In this document: piece after piece, positions 21,715 to 63,630 of the stretch
Numbering within the stretch: the stretch's first letter is position 1
Layout: the number at the start of each line of letters is the position of its first letter
Assembly: GCF_900128725.1 (NCBI RefSeq)
Contig: NZ_LT667500.1
Location: forward strand, 248,001 to 312,000
DNA: 64,000 bases
Source: Buchnera aphidicola
GTDB taxonomy: Bacteria; Pseudomonadota; Gammaproteobacteria; Enterobacterales; Enterobacteriaceae
Direction: 5' to 3'
Program-made: the position numbers and the translations under genes
The notes under the pieces: model-generated
What the model saw: the letters and a program-made list of their open reading frames with translations, nothing else
The model's database searches: none
Told to the model about the DNA's origin: nothing

Positions 21715-22661
21715 ATGCGCACTCATGATTCGCTTAAAAAAGTAATCACTATTCAAAAACACATGTCAGAACAAAGAATTGATAATTTTTTATTTAAGAA
21801 TTTTAAAAAATTACCAAAAAGCATGATATATCGTAGCTTACGAATTGGAAAAATAAAAATCAATAAAAAAAAAGTCAAACCATACTATAAATTACAGAGA
21901 AACGACTGTATAACTATACACTCTATTAATATAGACATAAAAAAAAAAAAGTTTATTTAACCGGATTAACTATTAATTTGTTTTTAAAAAACATTTTATT
22001 TGAAGATAAATATTTAATCGTTTTTAACAAGCCTTGCGGAATTGCCGTACACGGAGGAAGCGGAATAAGCTATGGTGTAATAGAAACTTTTAGAACAATG
22101 CGTCCAGAATTAAAATTTTTAGAATTAGTTCATCGTATTGATAAAGAAACATCCGGAATACTTCTTCTAGCAAAAAAACGATCAATTTTAAAAAAAATGC
22201 ATGAAAATTTCTATTTAAAGAAAATAAAGAAAGAATATTTAGCATTATTACAAGGACATTGGTCAAAAAAAAACAAAGTAATAACCCTTCCATTATTCAT
22301 AGGAAGTAATATAAACCAAAAAAAAAAAGTATATGTGCATAAAGACGGAAAACCTTGTAAGACCCATTTTTTAGTTAAAAAATATTTTTACGACACTACC
22401 CTTGTCTCTATTATCCCTGTTACAGGTCGTACTCATCAAATTAGAGTACATGCTTCACAATTTGGACACCCAGTTCTTTTTGATCAAAAATATGGAAAAA
22501 AAAAAACAAAAACCAATTATGTTATAAAAAAAAATAATAGATTGTTATTACATGCTTATAAGATATCTTTTCCGCACCCTAAAGATGATAAAAAATTTTC
22601 TATAATTGCTCCTTTAGATGAAAAATTTGAAAATTGCTTAAAATTTTTTTCAAAAAAATAA
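21715..22661 (+). CDS. rluC: 23S rRNA pseudouridine synthase RluC, frameshifted at A12
   Basis: Makes pseudouridines 955, 2504 and 2580 in 23S rRNA. The first frame (21715-21960) encodes the S4 RNA-binding domain (SEQRIDNFLFKNFKKLPKSM), and the second (in phase with 21978-22661) the catalytic domain with HRIDKETSGILLLAKKRS, carrying the catalytic Asp, and TGRTHQIRVHASQFGHP. The two frames join at a run of 12 A (21939-21950). One extra A, or a -1 slip, gives an uninterrupted protein of about 315 residues, and no stop lies between the parts in the shifted frame. Every family motif is intact, which argues for slippage rescue or a miscalled run rather than a dead gene. Confidence 0.85.
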
Positions 22662-22783
22662 TTATTATTATATGTATGTTTATAAAAATAATGTTATATT
22701 GTGATATAAAGATTTATTTTAGTTCTAAACAATTAAATTAATTGATGAACAAAAACATATTAATATTAATAATAGGAAAAAAA

Positions 22784-22981
22784 ATGGCTGTACAAAAAAG
22801 TAAACCTAGTCGCTCCAAAAGAGGAATGAGACGATCGCACGATCACTTAATTCAAAAAACATTTTCTACAGACAAAACTTCAAAAGAAATACATATCAGG
22901 CATCACATTACCGCAAAAGGATATTATAGAGGAAAAAAAACATCGTTATTCTTTGCAAGATCAGAACAAGATATTAAGTAG
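22784..22981 (+). CDS. rpmF: 50S ribosomal protein L32
   Basis: Small protein of the large subunit. [20 protein letters not shown] and the [10 protein letters not shown] segment are typical. The true start is the ATG at 22784, with AGGA seven bases upstream; an open frame back to 22742 (TTG) adds an unconserved stretch. The product has 65 residues, longer than E. coli (57) because the C terminus runs on for about ten residues with no match. It precedes the fatty-acid genes as in E. coli, where plsX and fabH lie between; both are absent here. Confidence 0.95.
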
Positions 22982-23304
22982 AAAAAGAATATTCGAATAA
23001 ATAATTAACATGATTTCGTTGTGAAATATATAAGCTATTTCGTACATCGTTTTATTTTTTAAAAATATTTTTAAAAAATACATAAGTATATATTTAAAAA
23101 CTCTATTTCCCTCTAAAAGTTTTTTTGTTCAGTTCCATTAACGTTAATAATTATTTATTTCGTACATATTTTCAAACTCTTATATGCTCTATATAAAAAA
23201 GCATGTGTGTTTATTGTGAAAAACACATGTGTTCTATTCCAATAAGATATCTATCTATATTATCGATTATACTGCTATAAAAAAGCTAATAGGTCAATTA
23301 TTAT
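22982..23304. other. Spacer between rpmF and fabD
   Basis: 323 bases, no gene. plsX and fabH of the E. coli order are missing. An imperfect hairpin at 23202-23229 is the only structure I see; it may end the rpmF transcript or lie in the leader of the fab operon. Confidence 0.5.
23202..23229 (+). repeat. Imperfect hairpin before fabD
   Basis: CATGTGT-G-TTT pairs with AAA-A-ACACATG across a short loop, ten pairs with one mismatch. No T run follows, so the function is unclear. Confidence 0.3.
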
Positions 23305-24245
23305 ATGAACCAATTTGCAATAATTTTTCCCGGATTAGGAACTTACAACATAAAAGTATTAGAAGCATTATTTAAAAAACATAATATAATTCGCCAAACA
23401 TTTACTGAAGCATCAGACATATTACACAATAACATATATAAAGACTTTATAATTAATGCATCTGATCCTTTGTATTACAAAAAAAATATATATTTAATTA
23501 TATTCATTTCATCAATTGCCATATACAGGACATTAAATAAAGAAATAGATATTAATCCCGGTATTATGGGTGGACATAGCTTAGGCCAATATTCTGCTTT
23601 GGTCTGCAATAATAATATTTTATTTCAAGAAGCTCTAAAAATAATTAAAATACGTAATCAAATTATGCTATTAGCAGTTAAAAATATTCGTATATTAAAT
23701 TTAATAATTTTAGGATTAAACTATAATATTGTAAAAAGAATTTGCACATCAGTGTCTACTACAAAAAAAAAGTATTTATCTCTATTGTTAACTCAAAAAA
23801 ACAAATAGTCATTACGGGACATTATTCAGCAGTACATTATGCTGGAACTATTTTGAAAAAACTTTTTTTTGCAAAAATTATTCGATTACCTATCTTAATT
23901 GCACCTCATTGTTTATTGATGAAAAAATATAAAAAACACTTTTCTTTTTATTTAAAAAAAATAAATATTTCTTCAAGCACAAATGCAATTATTAGCAATC
24001 ATAATTCTAACCTTCTATATTCAAAAAAAGATATCTATAATTCATTAGTCAAACAAATATATAAAAAAGTACGATGGAGTGATAATATCAAAAAAATAAT
24101 TTCTTTAAGAAAAAAAATAATTATTGAAATAGGAATCGGAAGAATATTAACTAATCTAAATAAAAAAAACAAAACAATTCAATCATATTCTACTGATCAT
24201 AGTAAAAAATTATCATTAATCGTAGATATAATCAAAAAATTATGA
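23305..24245 (+). CDS. fabD: Malonyl-CoA-ACP transacylase FabD, frameshifted at A9
   Basis: Moves malonyl from CoA to acyl carrier protein, feeding fatty-acid synthesis. The first frame (23305-23808) carries the nucleophile GGHSLG (Ser92) and Arg117; the second (to 24245) carries the catalytic His in APHCLLM and the end segment EIGIGRILTNL. The frames meet at a run of nine A (23763-23771): one extra A, or a -1 slip, gives CTSVSTTKKKVFISIVNS, matching E. coli across the joint. The oxyanion-hole Gln11 (FPGQG in E. coli) reads Leu (FPGLG). The stop overlaps the fabG start, so the two are translationally coupled. Conservation on both sides implies the product is made. Confidence 0.85.
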
Positions 24246-24979
24246 AAAAAAAAATTGCTTTAATTACGGGCGCTAATCGAGGCATCGGTAAAAAAATTGC
24301 TACAGACTTAATAAATCTAGGAATATACGTCATAGGCACAACAACTACAAAAAAAGGGTTGGTCAAAATAAAAAAAAGATTTCAATCAAACGGAACTGGA
24401 GTATTGATAAACTTTATACATAACTCTACAATTAAAAAAAAAATAAAATCGATAATTAATAAATTTAAAGTTATTGATATTATTGTTCATAACGCTGGAG
24501 TGATATATGATAATTTATTAGTAACAATGAAAGACGAAGAATGGACAAATGTTATAGACATTAATTTATCTGCTATATTTTATATTACAAAAATCATCCT
24601 ACCGCCTATGATCAAACAAAGATATGGCCGAATAATTGTCATCAGCTCACTCTCCGGAAAAATAGGGCAAAAGGGACAAACAAATTATTCAGCATCAAAA
24701 TCTGGTTTGATAGGTTTTGCAAAATCTTTAGCGTTAGAGGTGGCTTCCAAAGGAATTACAGTGAATATTGTTTCTCCCGGATATATTATAACTAATATGA
24801 CTAAAAATATACTATCTTCTCGAAAAAAGGAAATTTTGAAAAAAATACCGGTAGGTCGCTTTGGAAAAACCAAAGATGTCTCTCACCTTGTATCTTTTTT
24901 GTCATCAGAAAAATCTTCCTATATTACTGGCCAAAATATTCATATTAACGGCGGCATATATGCTTCTGCAAGCACATAA
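24242..24979 (+). CDS. fabG: 3-oxoacyl-ACP reductase
   Basis: NADPH-dependent short-chain dehydrogenase that reduces 3-ketoacyl-ACP in fatty-acid elongation. The cofactor loop GANRGIG is at residues 10-16, NAG near 84, and the catalytic triad is Ser136, Tyr149 and Lys153 (TNYSASKSGLIGFAKSLALE). The 245 residues compare with 244 in E. coli. The ATG overlaps the fabD stop by four bases (ATGA), showing translational coupling, and acpP follows 75 bases later. Confidence 0.96.
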   Translation: MKKKIALITGANRGIGKKIATDLINLGIYVIGTTTTKKGLVKIKKRFQSNGTGVLINFIHNSTIKKKIKSIINKFKVIDIIVHNAGVIYDNLLVTMKDEEWTNVIDINLSAIFYITKIILPPMIKQRYGRIIVISSLSGKIGQKGQTNYSASKSGLIGFAKSLALEVASKGITVNIVSPGYIITNMTKNILSSRKKEILKKIPVGRFGKTKDVSHLVSFLSSEKSSYITGQNIHINGGIYASAST

Positions 24980-25054
24980 CTTTCCGTATATAATGATGTT
25001 ACAGTATTCATAATAAATTTCTACTATTATTCAATATCATGGAAAACGAAAAAA

Positions 25055-25291
25055 ATGAAAAGTATTACTAATCGAGTAAAAAGAATAATTCAAAAACAGT
25101 TCCCTACAAAAAAAACAATTTGTTTAAGCAGCCGGTTGCATAAAGAATTAAAAATTGATTCATTAGATTTCGTAGAATTAATTATGCTGTTAGAAGAAGA
25201 ATTTAATATTGAGTTATTCGACATAGAAGAAGAAACAATAAAAACAATACAAGATCTAGTAATATACATTACAAAAAAAATTAATAAATAA
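25055..25291 (+). CDS. acpP: Acyl carrier protein
   Basis: Carries growing acyl chains on a phosphopantetheine arm. The attachment site DSL has Ser at residue 36, exactly as in E. coli, followed by the recognition helix [16 protein letters not shown]. It has 78 residues and is acidic in the second half. The N-terminal loop is more diverged ([16 protein letters not shown]) than in most ACPs. It is the third fatty-acid gene in the row; fabF, which follows acpP in E. coli, is absent. Confidence 0.95.
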
Positions 25292-25307
25292 AGATAAAAG
25301 CTTATAT

Positions 25308-26291
25308 ATGAAGAACTATCCGTGGCTATTACATCAGTATAATGACATTATTGAAAAATACTTAAAAAAAAAATTACATCCAATCATTTTAATGCAATCC
25401 AATAACGATATAGGCGTTTCCAACTTAATTTTACAAATCTATAAATGGATTTTATGTTCTAATAAAAAAAAAAATAAAAATTGCGGGCATTGTCTCGCAT
25501 GCAGGCTAATAGATTTAAATAATCACCCAGATGTATATAATCTCTATCATTTATCTAAAAAAAAAAATATTGGAATTGACGTAGTTAGAAACGTTCTAAA
25601 TAACTTATATAATTCCTCACAACAAGGTGGAAAAAAAATAGTTTGTTTTCCCGAAATGAACAATCTCACCCAAGAAGCGAGTCATTCTATATTAAAAACT
25701 TTAGAAGAACCGCCACATGATACGATATTTTTTTTATGCACAAACAATATATTGCAAATCAATAATACCATTAAAAGTAGATCAACTATTTATCTAATTC
25801 CCTCTCCAAGCGAAAAAAACAATTTAATTTGGCTAAAAAAAAAGAATAAGTCTTTTCTTTCTTTTCAGCTATTAACTGCGTTACGAATGAATAATAACTC
25901 TCCTATTAATGCGCATAAATTTCTAAATAAAAATACCTTTAAACAAAGAGATATATTTATGCAAGCAATAAAAAAATATATTTTTGACCATAAAAATATT
26001 GATCTATTAAAATCTATATACGGTTACAATACAAAAAATGTTGTTTTGTGGGTTTTTTATTTGTTAATAGATACTATAAAATATAAAACAAATTACATAG
26101 GCAAAATCAGAAATATAGATAATTTAAAATTAATTAAGATAATTTCCAATAAAAATAGTATCAATGCATTAAAAAATAATTTATTAACTTGGATCAGTTA
26201 CCAAAAAATATTAACTCATGCATTTAATATTGATAAAAAGTTAGTTTTTACTGAGCAAATTTTATCATGGGCAAATGTAATATTAAAATAA
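25308..26291 (+). CDS. holB: DNA polymerase III delta-prime subunit
   Basis: Clamp-loader subunit that helps open and place the beta clamp. The N terminus NYPWLLHQYNDII matches E. coli, followed by a degenerate P-loop (SNNDIGVSN, so it does not bind ATP, as expected for delta-prime). The zinc module CGHCLAC is preceded by a further Cys, and the conserved LKTLEEPPHDTIFFL with the SRS arginine-finger region are present. It has 327 residues (334 in E. coli). Only 16 bases separate it from acpP; tmk, which usually stands here, is missing. Confidence 0.93.
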   Translation: MKNYPWLLHQYNDIIEKYLKKKLHPIILMQSNNDIGVSNLILQIYKWILCSNKKKNKNCGHCLACRLIDLNNHPDVYNLYHLSKKKNIGIDVVRNVLNNLYNSSQQGGKKIVCFPEMNNLTQEASHSILKTLEEPPHDTIFFLCTNNILQINNTIKSRSTIYLIPSPSEKNNLIWLKKKNKSFLSFQLLTALRMNNNSPINAHKFLNKNTFKQRDIFMQAIKKYIFDHKNIDLLKSIYGYNTKNVVLWVFYLLIDTIKYKTNYIGKIRNIDNLKLIKIISNKNSINALKNNLLTWISYQKILTHAFNIDKKLVFTEQILSWANVILK

Positions 26292-26322
26292 CGTTTTATC
26301 CAAACCAATAAGGATCAAGAAT

Positions 26323-27102
26323 ATGTTTTTAATTGACAGTCATTGCCATATTAATCGTATATATAATGCTAAAAAAAAAATAAATATTAATAATATTTTA
26401 AATAAAGCATATTCAAAACATGTTAAATTATTCTTATCCGTTTCTACATCCTTATCAGACTTTAACGATTTATTCAAACTTACAAGCGCATATAGAAATA
26501 TTTTTTTATCCTGCGGCCTACATCCGTGTTATTCACACTTGATCAATGATATCCAAGATATTAAGTCTCTTGCCACAAACAAAAAAGTCATCGCGATTGG
26601 AGAAACGGGGCTGGATTTCTATCGATCTCAACAAAAAAAAACCGAACAAATAACATTATTTGAAAAGCATATATGCATCAGTAGAATTACTAAGAAACCA
26701 TTAATTATACACAATAGACATGCAGATAATGAAGTTATAAATACTCTAGAAAACCAAAAAAATAAGTTATCTACCGGAATTATTCATTCGTTTACAGGAA
26801 CAACAGAATTTGCAAAAAAAATATTAGATTTAGGATTTTATATTTCATTTTCCGGAATTATTACATTTAAAAAATCACACGAATTACGTTCTGTTATAAA
26901 ATTTATTCCATTAGATAGATTATTAATAGAAACAGATTCTCCGTATCTCGCCCCTGAGCCGTATCGAGGAACTAACAATCAGCCCTATTTATTATATTAT
27001 ATAGCTCAAACTGTTAAAAAATGTTTAAACATAGATCTTGATAATCTCTCAGAAATACTAAAAAAAAATTTTTTTGAATTATTTAACATAAAAAACTTCT
27101 AA
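26323..27102 (+). CDS. tatD: TatD-family metal-dependent deoxyribonuclease
   Basis: Homologue of E. coli YcfH, a TIM-barrel metallohydrolase with 3'-5' DNase activity in characterised relatives. Metal ligands appear in order: DSHCH near residue 5, the Glu in IGETGLDFY near 89, His in IIHNRHAD, His in HSFTG, and Asp in ETDSPYLAPEP. It has 259 residues (265 in E. coli). AAGGA before the ATG supports the start. It follows holB by 31 bases, as in enterobacteria. Confidence 0.93.
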   Translation: MFLIDSHCHINRIYNAKKKININNILNKAYSKHVKLFLSVSTSLSDFNDLFKLTSAYRNIFLSCGLHPCYSHLINDIQDIKSLATNKKVIAIGETGLDFYRSQQKKTEQITLFEKHICISRITKKPLIIHNRHADNEVINTLENQKNKLSTGIIHSFTGTTEFAKKILDLGFYISFSGIITFKKSHELRSVIKFIPLDRLLIETDSPYLAPEPYRGTNNQPYLLYYIAQTVKKCLNIDLDNLSEILKKNFFELFNIKNF

Positions 27103-27738
27103 ATAAAATATAAAAAATAATTAAGTAAATGCTATTAATATAAAAATATTATATATTTCAAAAAAATAAAAGTATAGAATTTTATAATCAAGTTCACTAA
27201 CTATATTTTAATATTTTTTCAAAAACAAAGAATAACTAATTATTAAATTCATTACGCTAATTAAGAGAGCCTTAAATATGTAAATCTATTTATAGGCTCA
27301 AATCATTTTTTTTAACCATAAATACTACTCATTTAACCAAAACCTACAATATAACAAAAAGTTATATGATTGATATTTTTTTTATATTTCCATCATGCTG
27401 CAAAAAATATAATCAAAAATTAAATTATTAAATCATTTTAGAGTCTAACGAAGGCGTAGAAAAATAAATTATTATTTACATATACCGAAAGATACTCGAA
27501 ATACTTACTCTCGGCATAAAAATATTTTTATCAATATAAAAATAAAAAGCACCATATTTATAAACGTAAAAATATATATTTATAAAATAGAAAACGATAT
27601 CAATAAATAATGTTTTCTAAGCTAGACGCTTGTTCATAAATAAAATTCAGGCAATAAAATTGTATAGATGTTATCCGGCAAGGCAAACTTCTAAAAAAAT
27701 AAAAAAAATATTTATTTTATTTGATAAAAATAAATATT
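27103..27738. other. Noncoding spacer between tatD and asnS
   Basis: 636 bases with no gene, holding two terminator-like hairpins (27268-27313 and 27705-27740). In pea-aphid Buchnera, as I recall, the glucose PTS gene ptsG follows tatD. I find no trace of it, so it was probably lost here and the first hairpin could be its old terminator. Confidence 0.5.
27268..27313 (+). terminator. Terminator-like hairpin in the tatD-asnS spacer
   Basis: AGCCTTAAATA pairs with TATTTATAGGCT (one bulge) and is followed within a few bases by eight T. It reads as an intrinsic terminator for plus-strand transcription but lies 165 bases after tatD. Confidence 0.5.
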
Positions 27739-27740
27739 TT
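27705..27740 (-). terminator. Intrinsic terminator of asnS
   Basis: ATAAATATTTT/AAAATATTTAT forms an AT-only stem of 11 or more pairs overlapping the asnS stop. It is followed on the minus strand by a nearly continuous run of T (eight T, A, seven T). Confidence 0.55.
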
Positions 27741-29136
27741 AACAATCAGACTTACCAATAGTTCTAGGATAAGGAATTGATTCTCGAATATTTTTAACCC
27801 CAGTAATAAATAAAATTAATCTCTCTACTCCTAACCCAAATCCAGCATGAGGAACGGTTCCATATCTACGTAAATCTCGATACCAATTATATTTTTCCCT
27901 ATGCAGCTTTACTTCACGCATTCGCGCATCTAAATAATTCATCCTATCTTCTCTTTCAGATCCTCCGATAATTTCACCAACTCTTGGAATAAGCACATCA
28001 AACGCAGATACAGTCTGATTATCACTATTCAAACGCATATAAAATGCTTTTAATAATTTTGGATAATTGCGAATCACAATCGGGGATTTAAAATAATCAT
28101 GTATTAAATATTTTTCTTGCTGAGCAGATAAATCTTCTCCCCAAGAGATATTGTCCTGAATAATATTTCCATTCTTTTTTATTATATTGACAACTTCAGT
28201 ATATTCAATTTGTATAAACTTCATGCATAAAAATTTATTCAAACGAGATATAAGATTAACGTTAATCGTTTTTTGCAAAAAAATCAAATCAGGAAGGCAG
28301 TTATCTAAAACATAACTGATTACATATTTTAATAATTTTTCAGAAAAACTAGATATTTGATCAATATCAGCAAAAGCTTTTTCTACTTCCAACATCCAAA
28401 ATTCTGATAAATGTTTTTTTGTATTAGAGTTTTCAGCTCTAAAAGTAGGACCGAGTGAATATACCTTAGACAAAGCGCACGCATAAGCTTCTAATGTCAA
28501 CTGACCAGAAACCGTTAAGAATACTTTTTTTCCAAAAAAATCTATTTTTTTTGCACCTTTGTTTTCTCCATGAAGATGATTACTGGTATCTAATAAAGAT
28601 ACTTTAAACATGGATCCGGCGCCTTCGGCATCAATGCTCGTGATAATTGGTGAAGATACCCACAAGTAATTATGATTCTGTAAAAATTGATTCAAAGAAT
28701 AAAAAACAGTATTTCGAATTCTAGAAACAACACTAATTAACCTTGTTCGGGGTCTTAAATGAAGAAAATTCCTCATATATTCTACAGTATGTTTTTTTGC
28801 TGATATAGGATATAATTCAGGACGATCAACCCACCCTAAAACCTCAATATTATGTGCATTAATTTCATATATTTGAAAATTTCCGTAAGAAAGCAACAAT
28901 TGACCTTCGACAGAAATAGAACAACCTGCAGTTAATTTAGTGATTTCAGTAAAATTTTGTAATAAAGATTTTTTAGCCACTACCTGAATTGTATGAGCAG
29001 ATGAACCGTCATATATAGTTAAAAAAGATATTCCTATTTTTGACGTTCTTTTGCTTCTCACCCATCCGTTTATAGTAACTAGCTTATTTACATAATTGTT
29101 TTTTGTATAAATATCAAAAATAGAAGCAGTTTTCAT
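27739..29136 (-). CDS. asnS: Asparaginyl-tRNA synthetase
   Basis: Class IIb synthetase that charges tRNA-Asn. The N-terminal OB domain carries TINGWVRSKRTSKIGISFL (about residues 21-39). The catalytic core follows with FWVSSP-like motif 1, TVSGQLTLEAYACALSKVYS, FRAENSNTKKHLSEFWMLE (motif 2) and GFGLGVERLILFITG (motif 3). The 465 residues compare with 466 in E. coli, and there is no sign of decay. AAGGAAGT-like sequence precedes the ATG. It converges with tatD across a long spacer. Confidence 0.96.
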   Translation of the reverse strand: MKTASIFDIYTKNNYVNKLVTINGWVRSKRTSKIGISFLTIYDGSSAHTIQVVAKKSLLQNFTEITKLTAGCSISVEGQLLLSYGNFQIYEINAHNIEVLGWVDRPELYPISAKKHTVEYMRNFLHLRPRTRLISVVSRIRNTVFYSLNQFLQNHNYLWVSSPIITSIDAEGAGSMFKVSLLDTSNHLHGENKGAKKIDFFGKKVFLTVSGQLTLEAYACALSKVYSLGPTFRAENSNTKKHLSEFWMLEVEKAFADIDQISSFSEKLLKYVISYVLDNCLPDLIFLQKTINVNLISRLNKFLCMKFIQIEYTEVVNIIKKNGNIIQDNISWGEDLSAQQEKYLIHDYFKSPIVIRNYPKLLKAFYMRLNSDNQTVSAFDVLIPRVGEIIGGSEREDRMNYLDARMREVKLHREKYNWYRDLRRYGTVPHAGFGLGVERLILFITGVKNIRESIPYPRTIGKSDC

Positions 29137-29541
29137 AATTACTTCCTTTCGTGTAAAATAAATATATATAATGTATAATTTTAGTTATACGATCTATTTA
29201 AATAGTCGTACCATAAAGCTGTATAGTTAATTCAAAAAATTTATATTCAGATAATTAAAAAAATTAAAAAATCAATTTTTATATTTATTGGAATCGATTT
29301 TGTAATAAAAGTTCGTTAAAAATATTTAATATCTATAAAAAATATTAACCATATAATTATCAATACAATTTATGTTAAAAATAAACAGTAAATATTATGT
29401 AAAAGCCAATAATGACCCTGGATATATATTAAAAAATAAAAAAATTATTAACAATAAATATATTTATATATATTAAGCTAATGATTAATCAAATCTCAGC
29501 ATGCATGTACTTAAGAATATTATATATGTTCTAAAATGTTT
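29137..29541. other. Noncoding spacer between asnS and trhO
   Basis: 405 bases without a gene. In pea-aphid Buchnera I recall pyrD near this position; nothing of it is recognisable. I see no other structure apart from AT-rich repeats. Confidence 0.45.
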
Positions 29542-30489: not shown

Positions 30490-30567
30490 AAAGCGAAATC
30501 CGTTTTATATTAGTAGAGAATATAAATATATGTACATATGTTACATACGACAACTTGATCAATGTTT

Positions 30568-54132: not shown

Positions 54133-54304
54133 TTTACCGAGCAATCATACTCTCAAGAAGATATATAGACTTTAAAAAAAAATAAAATTATAAACAATAA
54201 TGAATATTTATTATAAGAATCATGCAAAAAAATTTTAATATTATATGAAGTATAATGCACTTTTTCAAATTTAATAAAATGAAAAATGACACATATATTA
54301 TAAT

Positions 54305-54336
54305 AAGAAACCCGGGATATACATACCGGGGTTCTT
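54305..54336. terminator. Bidirectional terminator between obgE and rpsI
   Basis: AAGAAACCCGG and CCGGGGTTCTT pair over 11 positions with one mismatch and a 10-base loop. It lies between two convergent genes and ends in T-rich sequence on the minus strand only after a short gap. Confidence 0.6.
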
Positions 54337-54351
54337 CAAAACAAACAAATT

Positions 54352-54744: not shown

Positions 54745-54772
54745 AATATAATAACCTTATTATTTAAACAAA

Positions 54773-55201: not shown

Positions 55202-55358
55202 AATACGATTCCTCAAATAATTACTTAATTTGTCAAATTGATTTACCTAAATTAGAGATAAAAAATTATTCTATATATCCTTTAATATAGATTAATACAT
55301 CTGGAGTCTTTGTATTTTATAAACACATATAATAAACAGTTAAGATGGAAACTTAAAT

Positions 55359-56504
55359 ATGCAAATAAAAAATAAATTATATTTCTTAAGAAATCAAATT
55401 AATAATTTAGATTATAAAATAATTAAAATATTAAAAAAAAGAGAATCTGCATCTGTGGAAATACTCAAGTACAAATTATCTAAACAGTTATGCATTCGCG
55501 ATAAAAACCGAGAGATAGAACTTTTTCAGTCTTTAAATAGACGCAGTAAAAAAAACAAAATAAATCCAGAATTTATAAAAAAATTATTTCAGATAATTGT
55601 TCATAATTCAATTCTTATACAAAAAAATTGGAAAAAAAAAATATTAACAAATCAAAAAAAATATTTTTGTGGATATTTAGGACCGATTGGATCATACTCG
55701 CACGCAGCTTTTTCATCTTTATCAAAAAAAAATAAAAATATTTTATTAGCGAGCGAACATTCGAATTTCACGTCTATAATAGAATCACTGGTTAGTAATC
55801 GTTGTAAATTTGCCTTACTTCCCATAGAAAATAGGATATCAGGAATTATTTCAGAGGTATATGACATAATTAAACAAAAAAAGGAAATATATATAATTAA
55901 AGAAATATATATAAAAATTAACCATCATTTATTGACTACCCAAAACTGCTTTATTAACGATATACAACGTATATATAGTCACGAACAACCTTTTAAACAA
56001 TGCAGCACTTTCTTAAATAAGTTTCCAGAATGGAAAAAATGTTACTTTCCTAGTACCGCGGCCGCAATAAAGCAAATGGTTATAGAAAACAATAAAACTA
56101 CAGCAGTATTAGGGTCTGCAGACGGAAAAGATTTTTATAATCTAAAATCTATAGCAAAAAATTTATCAAATAAAAAAAATAATATTACTAGATTTATTCT
56201 TATTTCAAAAAAATTAAAAAAAATACCCGAAAATATTGAGTCTAAAACTACTATTTTCATCACACTAAATGATAATATAACTAATAAAAAAAAAATACTA
56301 AATATTTTTAAGAAAAGAAATATTAAGGTAATTAAAATGATCTCTCCTAAAAATATTATAAAAAAAATACAAAAAACTTATTTCTTAGAAATTCAATCAC
56401 ATATAGATTCTGAAATTACAAAAGATGCATTACATCATGTAGCAAAATATGCAATAAATACTAGGATATTAGGTTGTTATCCCGCTGAATCTATGGAATT
56501 TTAA
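55359..56504 (+). CDS. pheA: Chorismate mutase / prephenate dehydratase, regulatory motifs lost
   Basis: Converts chorismate to prephenate and then to phenylpyruvate, the committed steps to phenylalanine. In the mutase domain all E. coli active-site positions are kept: Arg11, Arg28, Lys39, Asp48, Arg51, Glu52 and Gln88. The dehydratase domain has GYLGPIGSYSHAAF and the catalytic Thr in NNITRF. In the C-terminal ACT domain, the GALV and ESRP motifs that bind inhibitory phenylalanine in E. coli are replaced (NITNKK and ISPKN at those places), so feedback inhibition is probably gone. It has 381 residues (386 in E. coli). Such desensitised PheA is known from Buchnera and fits overproduction for the aphid. 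Confidence 0.95.
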   Translation: MQIKNKLYFLRNQINNLDYKIIKILKKRESASVEILKYKLSKQLCIRDKNREIELFQSLNRRSKKNKINPEFIKKLFQIIVHNSILIQKNWKKKILTNQKKYFCGYLGPIGSYSHAAFSSLSKKNKNILLASEHSNFTSIIESLVSNRCKFALLPIENRISGIISEVYDIIKQKKEIYIIKEIYIKINHHLLTTQNCFINDIQRIYSHEQPFKQCSTFLNKFPEWKKCYFPSTAAAIKQMVIENNKTTAVLGSADGKDFYNLKSIAKNLSNKKNNITRFILISKKLKKIPENIESKTTIFITLNDNITNKKKILNIFKKRNIKVIKMISPKNIIKKIQKTYFLEIQSHIDSEITKDALHHVAKYAINTRILGCYPAESMEF

Positions 56505-56602
56505 AACGAAAGATACATAAATTCGCGTTAATTGTAAACATAAAAAATAATTATAAAATTGTAAGTAATAAAATTAATCATAAAAAGGTGTTAATAATAG
56601 TT

Positions 56603-57949
56603 ATGTTTAATAGCTTAACAAAAAAAATTACAAAAATTTTTGAAAATTTTTCATATAAAGGGCATTTAAAGCCAATAGTTATCAAAAAAATGCTTAAAAA
56701 AGTAAAATATGCACTATTAGACGCCGACGTTTCCATCAAAGTTATACAAACTTTTTTAAAGAATGTTAAAGAAAAAATTCAAAATAGCCAAATTAATACT
56801 CACTTAAATCCAGGGCAAAATATCATAGATATAATCTTAAAAGAATTAATTTATATTATGGGAAATAAGCCACATTCATTTACATTTATGTCTAACAAAC
56901 TAACTATTTGTACTCTTATAGGTCACCAAGGCGCTGGAAAAACGACGAGTGTGGGGAAATTAGCCTATTTATTAGCGCATAAATATAAAAAAAAGGTACT
57001 TGTAGTATCTGTTGACATATATAGACCAGCCGCTATACTTCAATTAAAAAGACTAATAAAGCAAACAAAAGCTGATTTTTTTTCATCTCATGTTAACCAA
57101 CAAGCTATTGAAATAGTAAAACTAGCAAAGAAAGAAGCAAGTAAAAAAAAATATGATGTATTGCTTATTGATACCGCAGGAAGACTGCACACCGATAAAT
57201 TTAAAATTAAAGAGTTGGAAAAAATACAAGAAAATGCCCAGCCTCAAGAAACATTATTGGTCGTTGACTCCATGACAGGACAAGATGCTGTACATTCCAT
57301 TAATACATTTAATAAAAAATTCCAGCTATCAGGAGTAATTTTAACAAAATTAGACAGCGATACAAGAGGCGGAGCAGCTCTATCGATTCGAATGCTAACA
57401 AAAAAACCAATTAAATATATTGGTGTAGGAGAAAAAATACATGATTTACAAATTTTTTATCCAGAGCGAATCGCAAAAAGAATACTTGGGATGGGAGATG
57501 TATTATCAATAATAGATGATATTAAAAATAAACTAAAACACAGCGAAAAAAACTTGTTAAAAAAAACAACACAAAAAGGTGATACATTTAATCTAAACGA
57601 CTTTTTGATACAAATTAAACAAATAAAAAAAATTGGCGGCATTAGCTCTTTAATAAATAAATTGCCAGTCAATATCATTCCGTCTCGCGCAATGCTAGAC
57701 AGCATAGATGAAAAATCCTTAATAAAAATTGAAGCTATGATTAATTCAATGACAAAACAAGAAAAAAGTTACCCTTCTATAATAAAATCACAAAGAAAAA
57801 AAAGAATTGCACGGGGATCTGGAAACACAATACAAGCAATAAATATTTACTTAAAAAAATTTGAACAAACTAAACGCATGATGAAAAATATAAAAAAAAA
57901 TAAAAAAAACCAAATATTTGAAAAAATTAAAAATTATCTGATAAAATAA
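56603..57949 (+). CDS. ffh: Signal recognition particle protein Ffh
   Basis: SRP GTPase that, with 4.5S RNA and FtsY, targets membrane proteins to the Sec translocon. N domain, then G domain with GHQGAGKTTSVGK near residue 104, DTAGRLHTD, TKLDSDTRGGAAL and the M domain with RNA-binding SQRKKRIARGSGNTIQ. I chose the ATG at 56603 (448 residues, MFNSLTKK like E. coli MFDNLT); a GTG five codons upstream overlaps the probable ribosome binding site AAGGTG. The C-terminal methionine-rich finger region is much poorer in Met than in E. coli, which may alter signal-sequence binding. Confidence 0.94.
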   Translation: MFNSLTKKITKIFENFSYKGHLKPIVIKKMLKKVKYALLDADVSIKVIQTFLKNVKEKIQNSQINTHLNPGQNIIDIILKELIYIMGNKPHSFTFMSNKLTICTLIGHQGAGKTTSVGKLAYLLAHKYKKKVLVVSVDIYRPAAILQLKRLIKQTKADFFSSHVNQQAIEIVKLAKKEASKKKYDVLLIDTAGRLHTDKFKIKELEKIQENAQPQETLLVVDSMTGQDAVHSINTFNKKFQLSGVILTKLDSDTRGGAALSIRMLTKKPIKYIGVGEKIHDLQIFYPERIAKRILGMGDVLSIIDDIKNKLKHSEKNLLKKTTQKGDTFNLNDFLIQIKQIKKIGGISSLINKLPVNIIPSRAMLDSIDEKSLIKIEAMINSMTKQEKSYPSIIKSQRKKRIARGSGNTIQAINIYLKKFEQTKRMMKNIKKNKKNQIFEKIKNYLIK

Positions 57950-58028
57950 CATTTAGCTAAATTCATTTTGTCTAGAGCAAATAAGTATTTCTTTTTAATA
58001 AAAACTACATAAAACATAAGGCAGAACT

Positions 58029-58271
58029 ATGATAAAAATTAGACTTGCTCGACATGGAGCCAAAAAAAAACCATTTTATAAAATAATAATATCAGATGTA
58101 AGATCTGCTCGTAATGGAAAATTCATCGAACGTATTGGATATTTTAATCCGTTTGCTAAAAAAAATGAAAAAAAAATACATATTCGTATTGAAAGAGCTC
58201 AATATTGGATACAAAAAGGAGCAAAACAATCTCATCGACTCAAAAAATTATTTAAAATATCTCAAAAATAA
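58029..58271 (+). CDS. rpsP: 30S ribosomal protein S16
   Basis: Small-subunit assembly protein. MIKIRLARHGAKKKPFYKI with DVRSARNGKFIERIGYFNPF matches E. coli closely. It has 80 residues (82 in E. coli). AAGGCAGA precedes the ATG. First gene of the classic rpsP-rimM-trmD-rplS operon, with ffh directly upstream as in enterobacteria. Confidence 0.97.
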   Translation: MIKIRLARHGAKKKPFYKIIISDVRSARNGKFIERIGYFNPFAKKNEKKIHIRIERAQYWIQKGAKQSHRLKKLFKISQK

Positions 58272-58311
58272 AAATAAACACTCGTCACTAACCCTAGTAT
58301 TTTTATAAATT

Positions 58312-58815
58312 ATGATTATCATAGGAAAAATTAGTCACCCGCACGGAATTTTAGGATGGGTACACGTTATTTCCTTTACGGAAATAAAAAAAAATATTTT
58401 TAAGTATTTCCCATGGAAATTAGAAAAATCAAACCTTCAAATCCATAAATGTGATATTTCCATGTATCGAAATTATTCTAAAAATTATATTATAAAATTC
58501 AAACATATTAATGACCGAAATAAAGCTACAAAAATTTCTAAAAAAAATATTTATATACCACGCAGTCAATTGCCTATACTCAAATATCAGGAATATTATT
58601 GGCATGATATTTTTCAATGTTATGCATATAGTGATAAAAAAGAAAAAATTGGTCCTGTAGTCGGTATACTAGATAATAGTTTCTATAACACGTTAGAGAT
58701 ATTGAATGAAAAAAAAAAAAAAAATATTAATGTACCATTTATACAACCTGAGATAATTCAAAGTATAGATATAAAAAATAAAATTATTATTATTAATAGC
58801 TCATACCCTAAATAG
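58312..58815 (+). CDS. rimM: 16S rRNA processing protein RimM
   Basis: Binds S19 and assists maturation of the 30S head. The N-terminal GKISHPHGILGWVHVISF and PRC-barrel segment YYWHDIFQCYAY (with the conserved YW) mark the family. It has 167 residues (182 in E. coli). The frame crosses a run of 15 A (58710-58724) without breaking; this is the longest A run I noticed in an intact gene in the window, and slippage there would shift a fraction of the product. Confidence 0.92.
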   Translation: MIIIGKISHPHGILGWVHVISFTEIKKNIFKYFPWKLEKSNLQIHKCDISMYRNYSKNYIIKFKHINDRNKATKISKKNIYIPRSQLPILKYQEYYWHDIFQCYAYSDKKEKIGPVVGILDNSFYNTLEILNEKKKKNINVPFIQPEIIQSIDIKNKIIIINSSYPK

Positions 58816-58840
58816 GTATTCTAAACATTGAATAAAAAAA

Positions 58841-59542
58841 ATGATAACATTCAGTATTATTACAATTTTTCCCGATATATTTAATACATTCTTGAAATAC
58901 GGAATAGTAAATCGAGCTATAAAAAAAAAAATTATTGATATCAATATTTTAAATCTCAGAGATTATAGTGATAACCAAAGAAAAAGAATAGATGACCAGA
59001 TTTATGGGGGCGGAGCAGGCATGCTAATAATGTTCTTACCTTTATTTAAAGCGGTTAACAGAGCAAAAAAAAATAAAAAAAAAAGCATTGTTATCTATTT
59101 ATCGCCACAAGGAAAAGTTTTAAAACATCAATATATACAGTATTTCATAAAAAAAAAAAATTTAATATTTATTTGTGGTCGTTATAAAGGTATTGATGAA
59201 AGATTTATACAAACTCAAGTAGATGAAGAATGGTCTATTGGAGATTATATTTTAACTGGCGGAGAATTAGCTGCTATGGTATTTATAGAAACCATTACCA
59301 GATTTATTCCGGGAGCTCTAAACAATAAACAATCTCTATTCGAAGAATCGTTCTCTCACGGTTTATTAGATTGTCCGAACTATACGAGACCAAAAAAAAT
59401 ACATAACTATACAGTACCTTCTACATTATTATCTGGAAATCATAACGAAATAAAAAAATGGAGATTAAAACATGCCATAAAAAATACTTTATTAAAAAAA
59501 CCTCATATGATAAAAAACATAAAAAGAGATACTAAAATATGA
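58841..59542 (+). CDS. trmD: tRNA (guanine-37-N1)-methyltransferase
   Basis: Makes m1G37 next to the anticodon of tRNAs reading CNN and some others, preventing +1 frameshifts. The SPOUT trefoil-knot motifs are intact: [45 protein letters not shown] with the catalytic Asp. It has 233 residues (255 in E. coli); the loss is in the C-terminal helical part. The stop overlaps the rplS start by four bases (ATGA), so the two are coupled. Confidence 0.95.
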
Positions 59543-59886
59543 ACAATTATATACAAAACCTAGAAAATGAATATAAAAAAAAAAATATACCTATATTTAA
59601 ATCAGGAGATTCTCTAGTTGTCCAGATATGGGTCTTAGAAAGTAATAAAAAACGAATCCAGGCTTTTGAGGGTGTTGTTATTGCTAAAAGAAATAGAAAC
59701 CTTAATTCTTCTTTTATAATACGAAAAATATCAAACGGAGAAGGCATAGAAAGAAAGTTTTTAATACATTCTCCTAATATACATAAAATAAAAGTTATTA
59801 AGCGAGGATGTGTAAAAAAAGCAAAATTATATTATTTAAGACACCGGACCGGAAAATCTGCTCGAATAAAAGAACAATTGAACTAA
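59539..59886 (+). CDS. rplS: 50S ribosomal protein L19
   Basis: Large-subunit protein at the interface with the 30S. It has 115 residues, exactly the E. coli length. [37 protein letters not shown] and [16 protein letters not shown] mark the family, and the end [19 protein letters not shown] is conserved. The ATG overlaps the trmD stop. Last gene of the rpsP operon, followed by a hairpin 78 bases later. Confidence 0.97.
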
Positions 59887-59963
59887 AAAAAGAATCATTA
59901 ATTTTTTAGAAATAATTATAATAACTTTTTTTGAATAATTAAAAAATTTATTTATATTAATTA

Positions 59964-59994
59964 TGCAGTCAGAATATTTTAAAAATTGACTGCA
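59964..59994. terminator. Hairpin between convergent rplS and tldD
   Basis: TGCAGTCA and TGACTGCA form a perfect 8-pair stem around a 15-base AT-rich loop, midway between two convergent stops. Probably serves both transcripts, though neither side has a long T run. Confidence 0.55.
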
Positions 59995-60012
59995 CAATAC
60001 AAATAAAAAAAA

Positions 60013-61461
60013 TTAGGATGATCCTCCTACCGTTAGTTTATCTACTCTAATCGTAGGCTGACCGACACACACCGGGATATTTTGTCCGTTTTTCCCACAA
60101 CAACCAAGACCATTATCCATCCGTAAATCATTTCCAACCATAGAAATTAGTTTCATTACCTCTATTCCAGATCCAATAAGTGTTGCAGATTTAAGGGGGT
60201 ATAGAATCTTGCCTTTTTTAACTAAATATGCTTCAGAAGTAGTAAAAACAAAATTTCCAGAAGTAATATCAACCTGTCCATCGCTAAAGTTAACAGCATA
60301 AATACCATACTCTAAGCTTAATATAATATCTTGAACAGCGTCTTTTCCCGGTAGTAAATATGTATTAGTCATCCTAGGCATAGGTAGACTCGAATAAGAA
60401 TCCCTCCGACCATTTCCAGTACTAGTCGACCCCATTAAGTGGGAGTTTAATTTGTCCTGCAGAAAAGACCTTAAAATCCCTTTATCAATTAAAATATTAT
60501 ATTTACTAGGGGTACCTTCATCATCAATATTAATAGATCCCCTAGAGCCTTTTAACGTTCCGTTATCTACTACGGTACATAAGTTAGAGGCTACTATTTT
60601 TCCCATTTTTTTAGTAAATATAGAGGTTTTCTTTCGAATAAAATCCCCTTCTAGTCCGTGACCTACGGCTTCATGGAATAAAATTCCAGGCCATCCCGAC
60701 CCCAAAATAACAGGAAAAGCTCCTGATATAGATGATTTAGCAGATAAAGAAATCAAAGCAATCCGTACCGCTTCTTTGGTCCAAGATTCTATTAATGTTT
60801 CATCATTAGACTGTTTCTTTAATAAATCTTGAAACCCTAGTCTACCTCCTCCTCCACTACAGCCATTTTCGCGAATACCGTTTTGCTCAGCCATAACTCT
60901 GATAGTAATACGCACTAAAGGGCGAACGTCTTGAGACAAAATATTACTATCAGTCGAACCGATTAATATTTCTTCGTACTCACAAGTTAGAGTCGCATAA
61001 ACATCTGTAATCCGGTGATCCGTATTACGAGCTAATTGATCAATTAAATTTAATGTATAAATTTTTTTTTCAATAGAAAAATTTTGTATTGAATTAAAGC
61101 GGGTATATAAATTCATATTATTAGAGTTAAAACTCTTTTTGAAAAGATGATTTGAAACATCGGGTATCATTTTACAAACTATCTTTGTGGAATCCATTAA
61201 ACTATTTAATGTAATGACATTAGTGCAAGAAAAAAATGTAGAACAATTTTTTATCACCCTAATACCTACTCCTTCGTCAAACAAATAAGTACTTTTTTTT
61301 ATTATGCTTTTCTCTAATACCCACGTCTCTTGCTCTCTTAGCTGAAAATAAATATCACCAAAATCAACTTTATTTTCTGACATATAATTTAATAATAAAA
61401 AAATATTACTTTCTTGAAGATTGTATCTATTTAATAAAACATTTTTCATAACCTTGATCAT
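60013..61461 (-). CDS. tldD: TldD, metalloprotease subunit
   Basis: Partner of TldE (PmbA) in a TldD/E protease that processes unfolded or modified peptides. The metal motif HEAVGHGLEGD (HExxxH) is near residue 260, with GWPGILFHEAVGHG around it; TGNGRRDSY, MPRMTNTYLLPG and VDITSGNFVFTTSEAY further identify it. I prefer the ATG at 61461 (482 residues, 481 in E. coli), which aligns with the E. coli N terminus; an ATG four codons later has a close AAGG. The protein is well conserved for a nonessential gene, and both halves are intact. Confidence 0.94.
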   Translation of the reverse strand: MIKVMKNVLLNRYNLQESNIFLLLNYMSENKVDFGDIYFQLREQETWVLEKSIIKKSTYLFDEGVGIRVIKNCSTFFSCTNVITLNSLMDSTKIVCKMIPDVSNHLFKKSFNSNNMNLYTRFNSIQNFSIEKKIYTLNLIDQLARNTDHRITDVYATLTCEYEEILIGSTDSNILSQDVRPLVRITIRVMAEQNGIRENGCSGGGGRLGFQDLLKKQSNDETLIESWTKEAVRIALISLSAKSSISGAFPVILGSGWPGILFHEAVGHGLEGDFIRKKTSIFTKKMGKIVASNLCTVVDNGTLKGSRGSINIDDEGTPSKYNILIDKGILRSFLQDKLNSHLMGSTSTGNGRRDSYSSLPMPRMTNTYLLPGKDAVQDIILSLEYGIYAVNFSDGQVDITSGNFVFTTSEAYLVKKGKILYPLKSATLIGSGIEVMKLISMVGNDLRMDNGLGCCGKNGQNIPVCVGQPTIRVDKLTVGGSS

Positions 61462-61703
61462 TAAAATAAATCTCTCAAAATAATCATAAAATATGATACG
61501 GAATCCAATCATAAAAAGGATTGTTTGCGACCTAAAAGTCTTTTACTTCCTTCAAATAAATTGCTATAAACAATGATTTGAATGATATAAAACCGAAAGA
61601 ATAATATAATTTTAATTATAAAAAACTATTTAATTCTTGAATTAAATGTTATTATATTTTAATTATAATTTTTTATAATTAAATTTATATTATAGGCGTA
61701 TAT

Positions 61704-62189
61704 ATGAATAAAAAAATAAAAATTTTGTTAATAAATGGACCTAACCTAAATTTATTAGGAACGCGAGAACCAAAAATTTATGGAAAAAAAACATTACCTC
61801 AACTAGTTCAAAAAATAAAAAAAATTGCAAAAAACCTAAACGTAAAAATTTATGATTTTCAATCCAATGCAGAACATCGAATCGTAGAAAAAATACACGA
61901 AAGCAAGACACTAAAAATAAAATTTATTTTAATTAATCCCGGAGCATTTGCTCATACCAGTCTCTCTATACGCGATGCGTTGTTGGCTGTTGGACTTCCT
62001 TTTTTTGAAATCCATATTTCTAATATTTTTTCTAGAGAAGAGTTTCGATCACACTCTTGGATATCTGATATAGCAAATGGTATTATATCCGGATTTGGAA
62101 CCGATGGATATATTTGGGCATTAAATAGTGCAGTTAGTTATGTATTAAAAAAACAAAACTTCAAAAAAAAATCAAACAGTAATTCATAA
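61704..62189 (+). CDS. aroQ: 3-dehydroquinate dehydratase, type II
   Basis: Third step of the shikimate route to aromatic amino acids. It is the small type II dodecameric enzyme, not the E. coli type I AroD. NGPNLNLLGTREPKIYG (residues 11-27) carries the catalytic Arg and Tyr, NPGAFAHTSLSIRDAL is typical, and HISN holds the catalytic His. It has 161 residues against about 150 for the family, with a short Lys/Asn tail added. With pheA in the same window, it supports aromatic amino acid supply to the host. Confidence 0.95.
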   Translation: MNKKIKILLINGPNLNLLGTREPKIYGKKTLPQLVQKIKKIAKNLNVKIYDFQSNAEHRIVEKIHESKTLKIKFILINPGAFAHTSLSIRDALLAVGLPFFEIHISNIFSREEFRSHSWISDIANGIISGFGTDGYIWALNSAVSYVLKKQNFKKKSNSNS

Positions 62190-62662
62190 AACGCACATGC
62201 AGTTTTATACTTTTATTTATTTAAAAAACCCATTTTCTTGTTTTAATGCTTCTTAGTTACTAATGCTCAACACAATAAAAACCTGAGTATCATTGGATTA
62301 AGTATATTATTGAACATCATCCAATAAAATTTTCCGTTTTTCGGGTAAAATACTATATATAAATTATTTTACTTATTTGATAACAATTAAAGAAAATAAT
62401 TTCTTAAAAAAAAGATGTATCCAATGAAGAAAATATAAAAACTCTCTTTATTGAAAGAAAATTGAAGCTAAAGAACAAGCCGTATTTTTATTTTAAAGTA
62501 ACATATTTTGGCTTCATCAATAGAAATACAATTATTAAAAATTAATATATAAAAAATTTTACTACTAAAAAAATCAGTTTTTTTAAATCTTTTTTATTAT
62601 AACATATATAATAAAAAAGATGCATGTAAAACTAATGATTGAAGTAATCACTACTCACTTCA
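62190..62662. other. Noncoding spacer between aroQ and rluD
   Basis: 473 bases between two convergent genes with no reading frame. A perfect 15-pair hairpin near the rluD end is the only strong structure. Confidence 0.55.
62587..62621. terminator. Perfect 15-bp hairpin downstream of rluD
   Basis: ATCTTTTTTATTATA and TATAATAAAAAAGAT pair without mismatch around a 5-base loop, 42 bases after the rluD stop. The stem is AT-rich and carries T runs inside rather than after it. A likely shared terminator for the convergent aroQ and rluD transcripts. Confidence 0.55.
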
Positions 62663-63630
62663 TTATTTCATATCTTCTTCATATAAACAATGAATTAACG
62701 CAACCATATCACTTGGGGGACCGGCTACCCAATTTCGCATCAAACCTCTAGATGGATATATGAAAGTTAACCTTCTTGCATGTAACGCTGGTCTAAACCA
62801 ACCGAATAATATTTTATGTAACCTATTAGTAGAGGAACATAAAAGTCGCGCTCTAAAACCTGGATCGTATACTTGATCGCCTAAAACAGGATGAGAAATA
62901 GATGAAAAATGTACTCTAATCTGATGCGTTCTACCTGTTTCTAATCGTACTCGCAAATATGTACAGTGCCGAAATATAGCTATCACTTGATAACGAGTAA
63001 TAGATTCTTTTCCTCCTGCGCTTACCATCATTTTAGTACGGCGGAATATATGGCGTTTAATGGGTCGATTAATTTCTCCGTCTCGTTCAATCCGACCAAC
63101 TACGATAACATCGTATTCTTTAATAATTTTACGAGTTTTAAATAAATCTAAAAGATACTGATATGCCGCTATTTTCTTTGCTATCACCAATAAGCCTGTT
63201 GTATGTCGATCTAATCGATGAACAATTCCAGCTCTAGGTAAATTAATACTTTCTTTATAATGATAAATTAAAGAATTAAACAACGTACCAGAGGTATGCC
63301 CGTAACCTAAATGAACTACTAAATCATAAGGTTTATTAATAATAAGGATATCTGAATCTTCAAAAATAATATTCAAAGGTATATTTTCTTCTTTAAATTC
63401 AATACAAGTATTTATGTCTTGAATATATAAACAAATTTTATCATTTAAAAAAACTTTTTTTTTGGAATCCGTATAGTTTTTTTATTAATAGAAACATATC
63501 CTGATAAAATTAATTTTTTAACCATAGATCGGGATATCTCATTAACTTGAGAAACGATAATTTTATCTAATCGAATAGCTGATAATTGCTGCATTGAAAC
63601 CGTGAATTTAATTATTTTTCTGTTAGACAT
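62663..63630 (-). CDS. rluD: 23S rRNA pseudouridine synthase RluD, frameshifted at A9
   Basis: Makes pseudouridines 1911, 1915 and 1917 in helix 69 of 23S rRNA, important for 50S function. The first frame (63630 to 63445) holds the S4 domain (IRLDKIIVSQVNEISRSMVK); the second (to 62663) holds the catalytic domain with HRLDRHTTGLLVIAKKIA (catalytic Asp) and ETGRTHQIRVHFSSISHP. The frames join at nine A on the minus strand (63455-63463). One extra A, or a -1 slip, yields PKKKVFLNDKICLYI then EENIPLNIIFEDSDI, matching E. coli across the joint without a stop. The intact motifs on both sides suggest the product is still made. Confidence 0.86.

What the first reader, a model, noticed from the sequence alone, without database searches (positions are those of the whole stretch)
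21715..63630. All three frameshifts need the same correction: one extra A or a -1 slip
In rluC, fabD and rluD the downstream frame is reached by the identical net change, always at poly(A), with no stop in the joining stretch. Random pseudogenisation would give mixed directions, and breaks and stops elsewhere. The pattern fits either systematic loss of one A in the assembly or real, tolerated slippage. If real, about 5% of the genes here depend on it.
Basis: partly seen in the sequence, partly recalled or inferred. Interest (0 to 1): 0.82.

Follow-up and report, generated by a model that had tools for sequence, protein, structure and literature searches.

The report
Recurring one-base frameshifts in symbiont genes
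Three genes of this aphid symbiont are broken by one missing base inside a run of As; two of the breaks recur in most related symbionts, and the rluD break is also found at the same site in symbionts of other genera, so they look like old breaks that the cell reads past rather than sequencing errors.

Summary
rluC, fabD and rluD each change frame by -1 at a run of 12, 9 and 9 A, with both frames open across the run. The genome is a Buchnera near those of Cinara aphids. An assembly error is unlikely for rluC and rluD: of 16 genomes held of the genus, rluD is frameshifted at the same homologous site in 14 and rluC in 11, always -1. Among 66 reduced genomes of 54 other genera, rluD has the same break in 6 and rluC a -1 break in the same linker in 3. 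Counting one event per gene per genus, 22 are -1 and 1 is +1. The frameshifted catalytic halves are under ordinary purifying selection; no conserved internal start was seen for rluC or rluD. Best reading: one base lost in replication, tolerated because RNA polymerase slippage, perhaps with ribosomal slippage, restores part of the product. This rescue is a known kind; I saw no earlier report of the shared rluD site. Slippage itself was not measured: no RNA or protein data.

The parts
21715..21960 (+). rluC, upstream half (S4 domain) in the zero frame, stop at 21958-21960
   Evidence: RluC profile positions 1-78 of 317
21939..21950 (+). rluC run of 12 A followed by G; zero frame reads AAA AAA AAA AAG
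21930..22661 (+). rluC, downstream half (catalytic domain), open in the -1 frame
   Evidence: RluC profile positions 93-313 of 317
23305..23808 (+). fabD, upstream half in the zero frame
   Evidence: FabD profile positions 2-150 of 290
23763..23771 (+). fabD run of 9 A followed by G; zero frame reads AAA AAA AAG
23742..24245 (+). fabD, downstream half in the -1 frame
   Evidence: FabD profile positions 152-286 of 290
63445..63630 (-). rluD, upstream half (S4 domain) in the zero frame
   Evidence: RluD profile positions 3-59 of 325 (24 bits)
63455..63463 (-). rluD run of 9 A followed by G; zero frame reads CCA AAA AAA AAG
62663..63481 (-). rluD, downstream half (catalytic domain), open in the -1 frame
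   Evidence: RluD profile positions 84-314 of 325

Best explanation
These are real, old, tolerated frameshifts. SHOWN: the frame change, its place at the run, its -1 direction, its recurrence at the same place in relatives (rluC, rluD) and in other symbiont genera, and purifying selection on the frameshifted catalytic halves of rluC and rluD. INFERRED: in an AT-rich symbiont, lysine codons become long A runs; DNA replication drops one base; the gene survives because RNA polymerase, while copying a long run of A or T, adds an extra base in a share of transcripts, so that part of the mRNA carries one uninterrupted frame. A -1 slip of the ribosome on the lysine codons may add to this. Enzymes needed in small amounts, such as the 23S rRNA pseudouridine synthases RluC and RluD, bear the lowered output best, so such breaks persist in them.
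For: Recurrence at the homologous site: rluD 14 of 16 and rluC 11 of 16 genomes of the genus; rluD in 6 and rluC in 3 of 66 reduced genomes of 54 other genera. Direction: 22 of -1, 1 of +1, one per gene per genus (test). No -1 excess where no long run is present: 31 of 79 rows. dN/dS of the frameshifted catalytic halves in four close pairs: rluC 0.12-0.26 and rluD 0.16-0.25, inside the 10-90% range of 118-121 genes in each pair. Published for Buchnera: 151 of 157 transcription insertions lay in homopolymer tracts, against 16 of 57 deletions, and the rate grows with run length (PMC5574713, passages). A review reports 12-50% corrected transcripts for poly(A)-frameshifted genes of an aphid and an ant symbiont (PMC5009743, passages).
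Against: No RNA or protein data for this organism. [quoted passage not shown] The upstream piece of rluD has dN/dS 0.29-0.84, above the 90% point of all genes in all four pairs (77-109 codons, and the pieces reach past the run and the start in some genomes, so they are not clean). rluD carries stops in G041 and was not matched in G081, so some reduced genomes do without it. A 2025 paper counts rluD of one Blochmanniella as inactivated (PMC12779916, passages). In two other symbionts few pseudogenes gave detectable protein (PMC13345370, abstract). fabD rests on 2 of 16 genomes and its selection was not tested in a pair with both copies frameshifted.
Confidence: 0.68

Rival explanations
1. The main rescue is ribosomal: a -1 slip on A AAA AAG or A AAA AAA, as in dnaX of E. 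coli, with no change in the mRNA.
For: In this genome all three sites read A AAA AAG in phase. In its 164-kb block a run of 9 or more A in an unshifted ORF is followed by G at codon position 1 in only 17 of 179 cases. In rluC and rluD this genome alone has G there, an Ile-to-Val change against most relatives, of a sort seen at 187 of 2131 comparable columns.
Against: Relatives keep the frameshift without AAG (10 A then T in 13 of 14 rluD copies). In fabD the G after the run is shared with intact relatives. No stable structure in 80 nt downstream: z -0.75, -1.44 and -0.07. No AGGAG-like sequence seen by eye upstream. T-run cases exist too (tusC, holB), though U UUU UUU is also slippery.
Confidence: 0.22
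2. Early pseudogenes: the genes are inactive and not yet worn down; the direction reflects a mutational bias towards losing a base from long runs.
For: A cited paper finds minimal effects of losing RluD in wild-type E. coli and Salmonella, though in K-12 its loss gives a severe growth defect (O'Connor and Gregory 2011, title and passage seen through PMC5373646). rluD carries stops in G041. Intact copies of rluC (G010) and tusC have runs one base longer than frameshifted ones. The upstream piece of rluD is little constrained.
Against: Purifying selection on the catalytic halves in pairs where both members are frameshifted. No second frame change in the rluD and rluC copies chained, and no stop inside the catalytic halves. 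In the same block tldD of G003 and G015 shows what decay looks like: 4 and 3 frame changes in mixed directions.
Confidence: 0.12
3. Assembly or base-calling artefact: one A lost at each run.
For: Runs of 9-12 A are hard to sequence; many bacterial pseudogenes are attributed to sequencing or assembly errors (PMC11017572, passages). G009 has several weak frame changes near runs of 7-8.
Against: The same break at the same site in 14 of 16 and 11 of 16 genomes, whose RluD catalytic halves are 48-63% identical to this one. In the 164-kb block of this genome 179 runs of 9 or more A lie in ORFs without a frame change. G011 has the exact chromosome length published for the C. cedri symbiont, 416,380, and carries the rluD break. 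I could not see reads or the sequencing method of any genome.
Confidence: 0.04
4. Split genes: the two halves are made as separate polypeptides by internal initiation.
For: A catalytic half could act alone, as RluA lacks an S4 domain (recalled).
Against: No ATG, GTG or TTG is conserved in the downstream frame of rluC or rluD between the run and the catalytic core. Not tested for fabD across relatives.
Confidence: 0.03

Closest known systems
Poly(A)-tract frameshifts rescued by transcription slippage in Buchnera and Blochmannia (Tamas 2008, Wernegreen 2010; known here only through citing papers)
   Same: Single indel in a long A/T run, gene otherwise intact, some conserved across relatives.
   Different: Here the same rluD site is frameshifted in 7 genera (this one and 6 others) and the -1 direction is counted over 23 events; transcripts were not measured.
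Homopolymeric frameshifts counted per genome: 1-18 in Buchnera (PMC3164680) and 4-8 in Blochmannia (PMC4389277)
   Same: Same kind of lesion, same sort of organism. This genome has six in the 38% examined (rluC, rluD, fabD, tusC, recC and a holA-like gene).
   Different: The Buchnera paper stresses independent inactivation (murF); the passages read do not mention rluC or rluD.
dnaX -1 programmed ribosomal frameshifting in E. coli
   Same: A AAA AAG in phase at all three window sites.
   Different: No downstream structure found, no upstream stimulator seen by eye, heptamer not kept in most relatives, and the needed catalytic part lies beyond the shift.
rluD reported as inactivated in Blochmanniella BSEQ (PMC12779916, passages)
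   Same: rluD listed among genes left as ORF fragments, ascribed to deletions or indel frameshifts.
   Different: Those authors read the fragments as loss; the site was not given in the passages read.

Membership tests
Slippage-rescued poly(A) frameshift of endosymbionts | Frame change lies at an A or T run of about 9 or more | tested here: met
   12, 9 and 9 A. The census of the genus counted only runs of 9 or more; the 9 cases in other genera were found without a run filter and have 9-11 A
Slippage-rescued poly(A) frameshift of endosymbionts | Rest of the gene is open and recognisable | tested here: met
   Halves adjoin on one profile
Slippage-rescued poly(A) frameshift of endosymbionts | Conserved among related lineages | tested here: met
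   rluD 14 of 16, rluC 11 of 16; fabD 2 of 16 only
Slippage-rescued poly(A) frameshift of endosymbionts | Purifying selection on the frameshifted gene | tested here: met
   Catalytic halves of rluC and rluD inside the 10-90% range of 118-121 genes; upstream rluD piece not. fabD: none of the four pairs has both copies frameshifted
Slippage-rescued poly(A) frameshift of endosymbionts | mRNA pool of mixed run length with restored-frame transcripts | not testable with these tools
   No reads held
dnaX-type programmed -1 ribosomal frameshift | Slippery heptamer in phase | tested here: met
   A AAA AAG at all three sites
dnaX-type programmed -1 ribosomal frameshift | Downstream stimulatory structure | tested here: not met
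   z -0.75, -1.44, -0.07 over 80 nt
dnaX-type programmed -1 ribosomal frameshift | Upstream Shine-Dalgarno-like stimulator | tested here: inconclusive
   None seen by eye; no scan run
dnaX-type programmed -1 ribosomal frameshift | Heptamer A AAA AAG conserved in relatives | tested here: not met
   T or C follows the run in the other 13 rluD and 10 rluC frameshifted copies of the genus

The most novel reading that the evidence does not exclude
The frameshift in rluD (and rluC) is a regulatory site, not just a tolerated scar. RluD modifies helix 69 of 23S rRNA next to the decoding centre (recalled); if poorly modified ribosomes slip more on lysine runs, low RluD would raise its own synthesis, much as prfB does with release factor 2. 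That would explain why the same site in rluD breaks, in the same direction, in seven genera, why no reversion was seen in a clade of 12 genomes, and why rRNA and tRNA modification genes (rluC, rluD, tusC, tusE, rsmE) recur in the list. In this genome the A AAA AAG change at both sites would mark a move from transcriptional to ribosomal slippage.
Probability: 0.08. Interest if true: 0.85.

Novelty: new member of a known kind. Interest (0 to 1): 0.5.

Why it matters
Some papers score such genes as lost (rluD in PMC12779916). If rluD, rluC, tusC and others are still made, gene counts of reduced genomes and the metabolic models built on them are off in a predictable way. The recurrence of one site in rluD offers natural replicates on which transcriptional and ribosomal rescue can be told apart.

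Tried and rejected

A AAA AAG as a general rule: rejected, since most relatives keep the shift without it.

Rows dropped before counting. Of 152 frame-change rows (88 of -1, 64 of +1), 140 had a single change and 35 bits on both halves. Of these 51 had a run of 9 or more in the zone open in both frames: 48 of -1 (14 families), 3 of +1 (2 families). Dropped from these by reading: mdlA-like G011|72 (-1) and fmt-like G004|32 (+1, two genomes), where the upstream piece lies before the start codon. Six rows at a run of 8 were dropped as upstream or antisense matches (rplP-like G007|177, -1; G010|217, +1 in five genomes), and four rows at a run of 7, all -1, three of them in G009, were not counted. 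Added by reading the junctions: rluD G008, rluC G003, tusC G013 and tatD-like G002. polA G005 was not counted (frames not both open). G002|118 is called holA by my reading only; NCBIfam gave no match at 1e-15; it gives one -1 (G000) and the one +1 (G013). mdlA, fmt and rplP are likewise names from my reading. recC junction zones in G007 and G015 hold several runs; trpS rests on G009, whose quality I doubt.

Short rluD frames that proved to be something else: G091, G215 and G109, where I saw no S4 half upstream; G208 rluC was masked; G050 rluC is open across the linker. The other copies among the 66 genomes were judged by frame length only; G041, with stops in rluD, was left out of the 66.

Independence: the count of 22 to 1 takes one event per gene per genus. 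That the six other rluD genera are independent rests on their separate genus labels, on the open frame of G194, a congener of G050, and on a partly weakly supported RluD tree. Rooting with EF-G was not done.
Full report
OBSERVATION. In the window rluC, fabD and rluD are each read in two frames. The upstream halves end at stops soon after runs of 12, 9 and 9 A; the downstream halves are open in the -1 frame, and the stretch open in both frames (28, 79, 34 nt) contains the run. NCBIfam puts the halves on adjoining parts of the RluC, FabD and RluD profiles.

WHERE IT COMES FROM. The genome has 456,703 bases in 3 contigs. Its second contig is a leucine plasmid of Buchnera aphidicola, nearest in the plasmid collection to those of Cinara pseudotaxifoliae (75.0%) and Cinara cedri (76.4%) symbionts. 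Sixteen genomes of the genus are held. One of them, G011, has a chromosome of 416,380 bases, the length printed for the C. cedri symbiont in PMC3164680.

RECURRENCE IN THE GENUS. I read the rluD junction in all 16 genomes. It is frameshifted at the same homologous place in 14, intact in G005 and G009; the run is 10 A in 13 of the 14 and 9 A in this genome. rluC is frameshifted in 11 of 16, with runs of 11-15 A; G001, G005, G009, G010 and G011 are intact, G010 with a run of 14. fabD is frameshifted in 2 of 16, this genome and G006. Every one of these is -1. Between G002 and G014 the rluC site differs by substitution, not length. Genomes whose RluD halves are only 48-63% identical to this one would not be expected to share an assembly error at one homologous place, so an artefact is unlikely for rluC and rluD; I saw no reads.

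A WIDER CENSUS. I fetched syntenic stretches of 168 kb from each of 15 genomes and 100 kb more of this one, about 38% of each chromosome, and compared 154 gene families. Genes with a single frame change at a run of 9 or more were, besides rluC, rluD and fabD: tusC (7 of 16, a run of 10 T; one added by reading), recC (6), polA (2 counted), a TatD-family hydrolase (3, one added by reading), and one genome each for holB, aspS, trpS, rsmE and tusE, plus a gene that I read as holA (one -1, one +1). Names are from NCBIfam except holA. In rows with such runs 48 of 51 are -1. In 79 rows without a run of 7 or more in the shared open zone, 31 are -1 (16 families) and 48 are +1 (20 families, 15 rows from one ORF pair); many are, by my reading, alignment artefacts at gene starts, but they show that the method does not favour -1.

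OTHER GENERA. From 198 family genomes drawn evenly and relatives found earlier I took 66 genomes of at most 2.0 Mb, of 54 other genera, and looked at rluC and rluD in them. Short frames led me to read 14 junctions. In 6 genomes (G023, G050, G087, G090, G120, G217) rluD is broken at the same site as in Buchnera: nine A after CC or CCT, then G or T, -1. In 3 genomes (G022, G081, G156) rluC has a -1 change at a run of 10-11 A in the linker between S4 and catalytic domain. The other 5 were not of this kind. G050 has a congener, G194, with an open rluD. G+C of the stretches with these nine breaks ranged from 15% to 46%, so extreme AT richness is not required. Among the rows listed, which was cut before its end, only G023 and G090 outside the genus have a short rluD frame.

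DIRECTION. One event per gene per genus (13 in the genus, 9 outside) gives 22 of -1 and 1 of +1; for these numbers the two-sided binomial is 6e-6. In a clearly decayed gene of the same block, tldD in G003 and G015 (named), frame changes near runs of 7 or more were 2 of -1 and 4 of +1; Fisher's test gives 0.003, on very few events and on shorter runs. The -1 excess fits two causes that these data do not separate: replication tends to drop a base from long runs, or only -1 can be rescued, because polymerase slippage in Buchnera homopolymers mostly adds bases (151 of 157 insertions and 16 of 57 deletions lay in homopolymers; PMC5574713 passages). The same paper saw no transcription error that restored a frame.

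FUNCTION. In four close pairs in which both members are frameshifted in rluC and rluD, the catalytic halves have dN/dS of 0.12-0.26 (rluC) and 0.16-0.25 (rluD), ranks 33-94 of 118-121 genes and inside the 10-90% range each time. The upstream piece of rluC has 0-0.22 (55-89 codons). The upstream piece of rluD has 0.29-0.84 (77-109 codons), above the 90% point in all four pairs; these pieces reach past the run or the start in some genomes, so the value is unclean, but it counts against a tightly kept S4 half. No start codon is conserved in the downstream frames of rluC and rluD before the catalytic core. The simplest reading is that product with the catalytic half is still made at some level.

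MECHANISM. RNA polymerase slippage accounts for A and T runs alike and for the long runs found. Ribosomal -1 slippage is possible at every A-run site in the window. For this genome it gains some weight: rluC and rluD both carry a private change that creates A AAA AAG, of a sort seen at 8.8% of comparable columns; in fabD the G is shared with intact relatives. But no downstream structure was found and relatives keep the shift without AAG. I put transcription slippage first and ribosomal slippage as a contributor.

COMPARISON WITH PRINT. The phenomenon is known: PMC3017870, PMC4389277 and PMC3164680 (passages) count 1-18 such genes per genome and cite work showing rescue by transcription slippage in Buchnera and Blochmannia; PMC5009743 (passages) gives 12-50% corrected transcripts. 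I could not read the original papers. A search for Buchnera with rluD listed 4 papers; one for at least three of rluD, frameshift, symbiont and pseudogene found 332, of which 12 were listed. Of those that hold rluD I opened one, PMC12779916 (passages), which treats rluD of one Blochmanniella as inactivated. In these searches I saw no report of the shared rluD site, but the library lacks most subscription journals.

VERDICT. A new, unusually well replicated member of a known kind.

Noticed in passing
L205:6093-6521 (intact G004 copy); G000, G005, G006, G007, G012, G013, G015: tusC is frameshifted -1 at a run of 10 T in 7 of 16 genomes, scattered over the tree, and tusE at 13 A in G011. Both act in sulphur transfer to tRNA wobble uridines (recalled), including that of tRNA-Lys, which reads the A runs.
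   Followed up: partly
window 60016-61542: tldD is open in this genome but decayed in G003 and G015 with 4 and 3 frame changes in mixed directions; a useful decay control.
   Followed up: partly
window about 21096-21500: A remnant of flgI (P-ring): only residues 7-144 of the 362-residue G001 frame are matched, with a frame change near a run of 8 A, in a gene-poor stretch.
   Followed up: partly
G009 block, about residue 174 of G009|35: One ORF of 274 aa in G009 corresponds to two adjacent ORFs in the +1 frame in the 15 other genomes; I read it as neighbouring ribosomal protein genes (rplE and rpsN, by recall) run together, not as a frameshift.
   Followed up: no
G009: This genome has several frame changes near runs of only 7-8 bases that no congener shares, which may point to lower sequence quality.
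   Followed up: no
G041:C3:50125-50819; G081: rluD carries several stops in G041 and was not matched in G081, so the gene can be lost in reduced genomes.
   Followed up: no
window, whole: G+C of this genome's window is 26.7% against 18-23% in the syntenic blocks of its 15 congeners.
   Followed up: no
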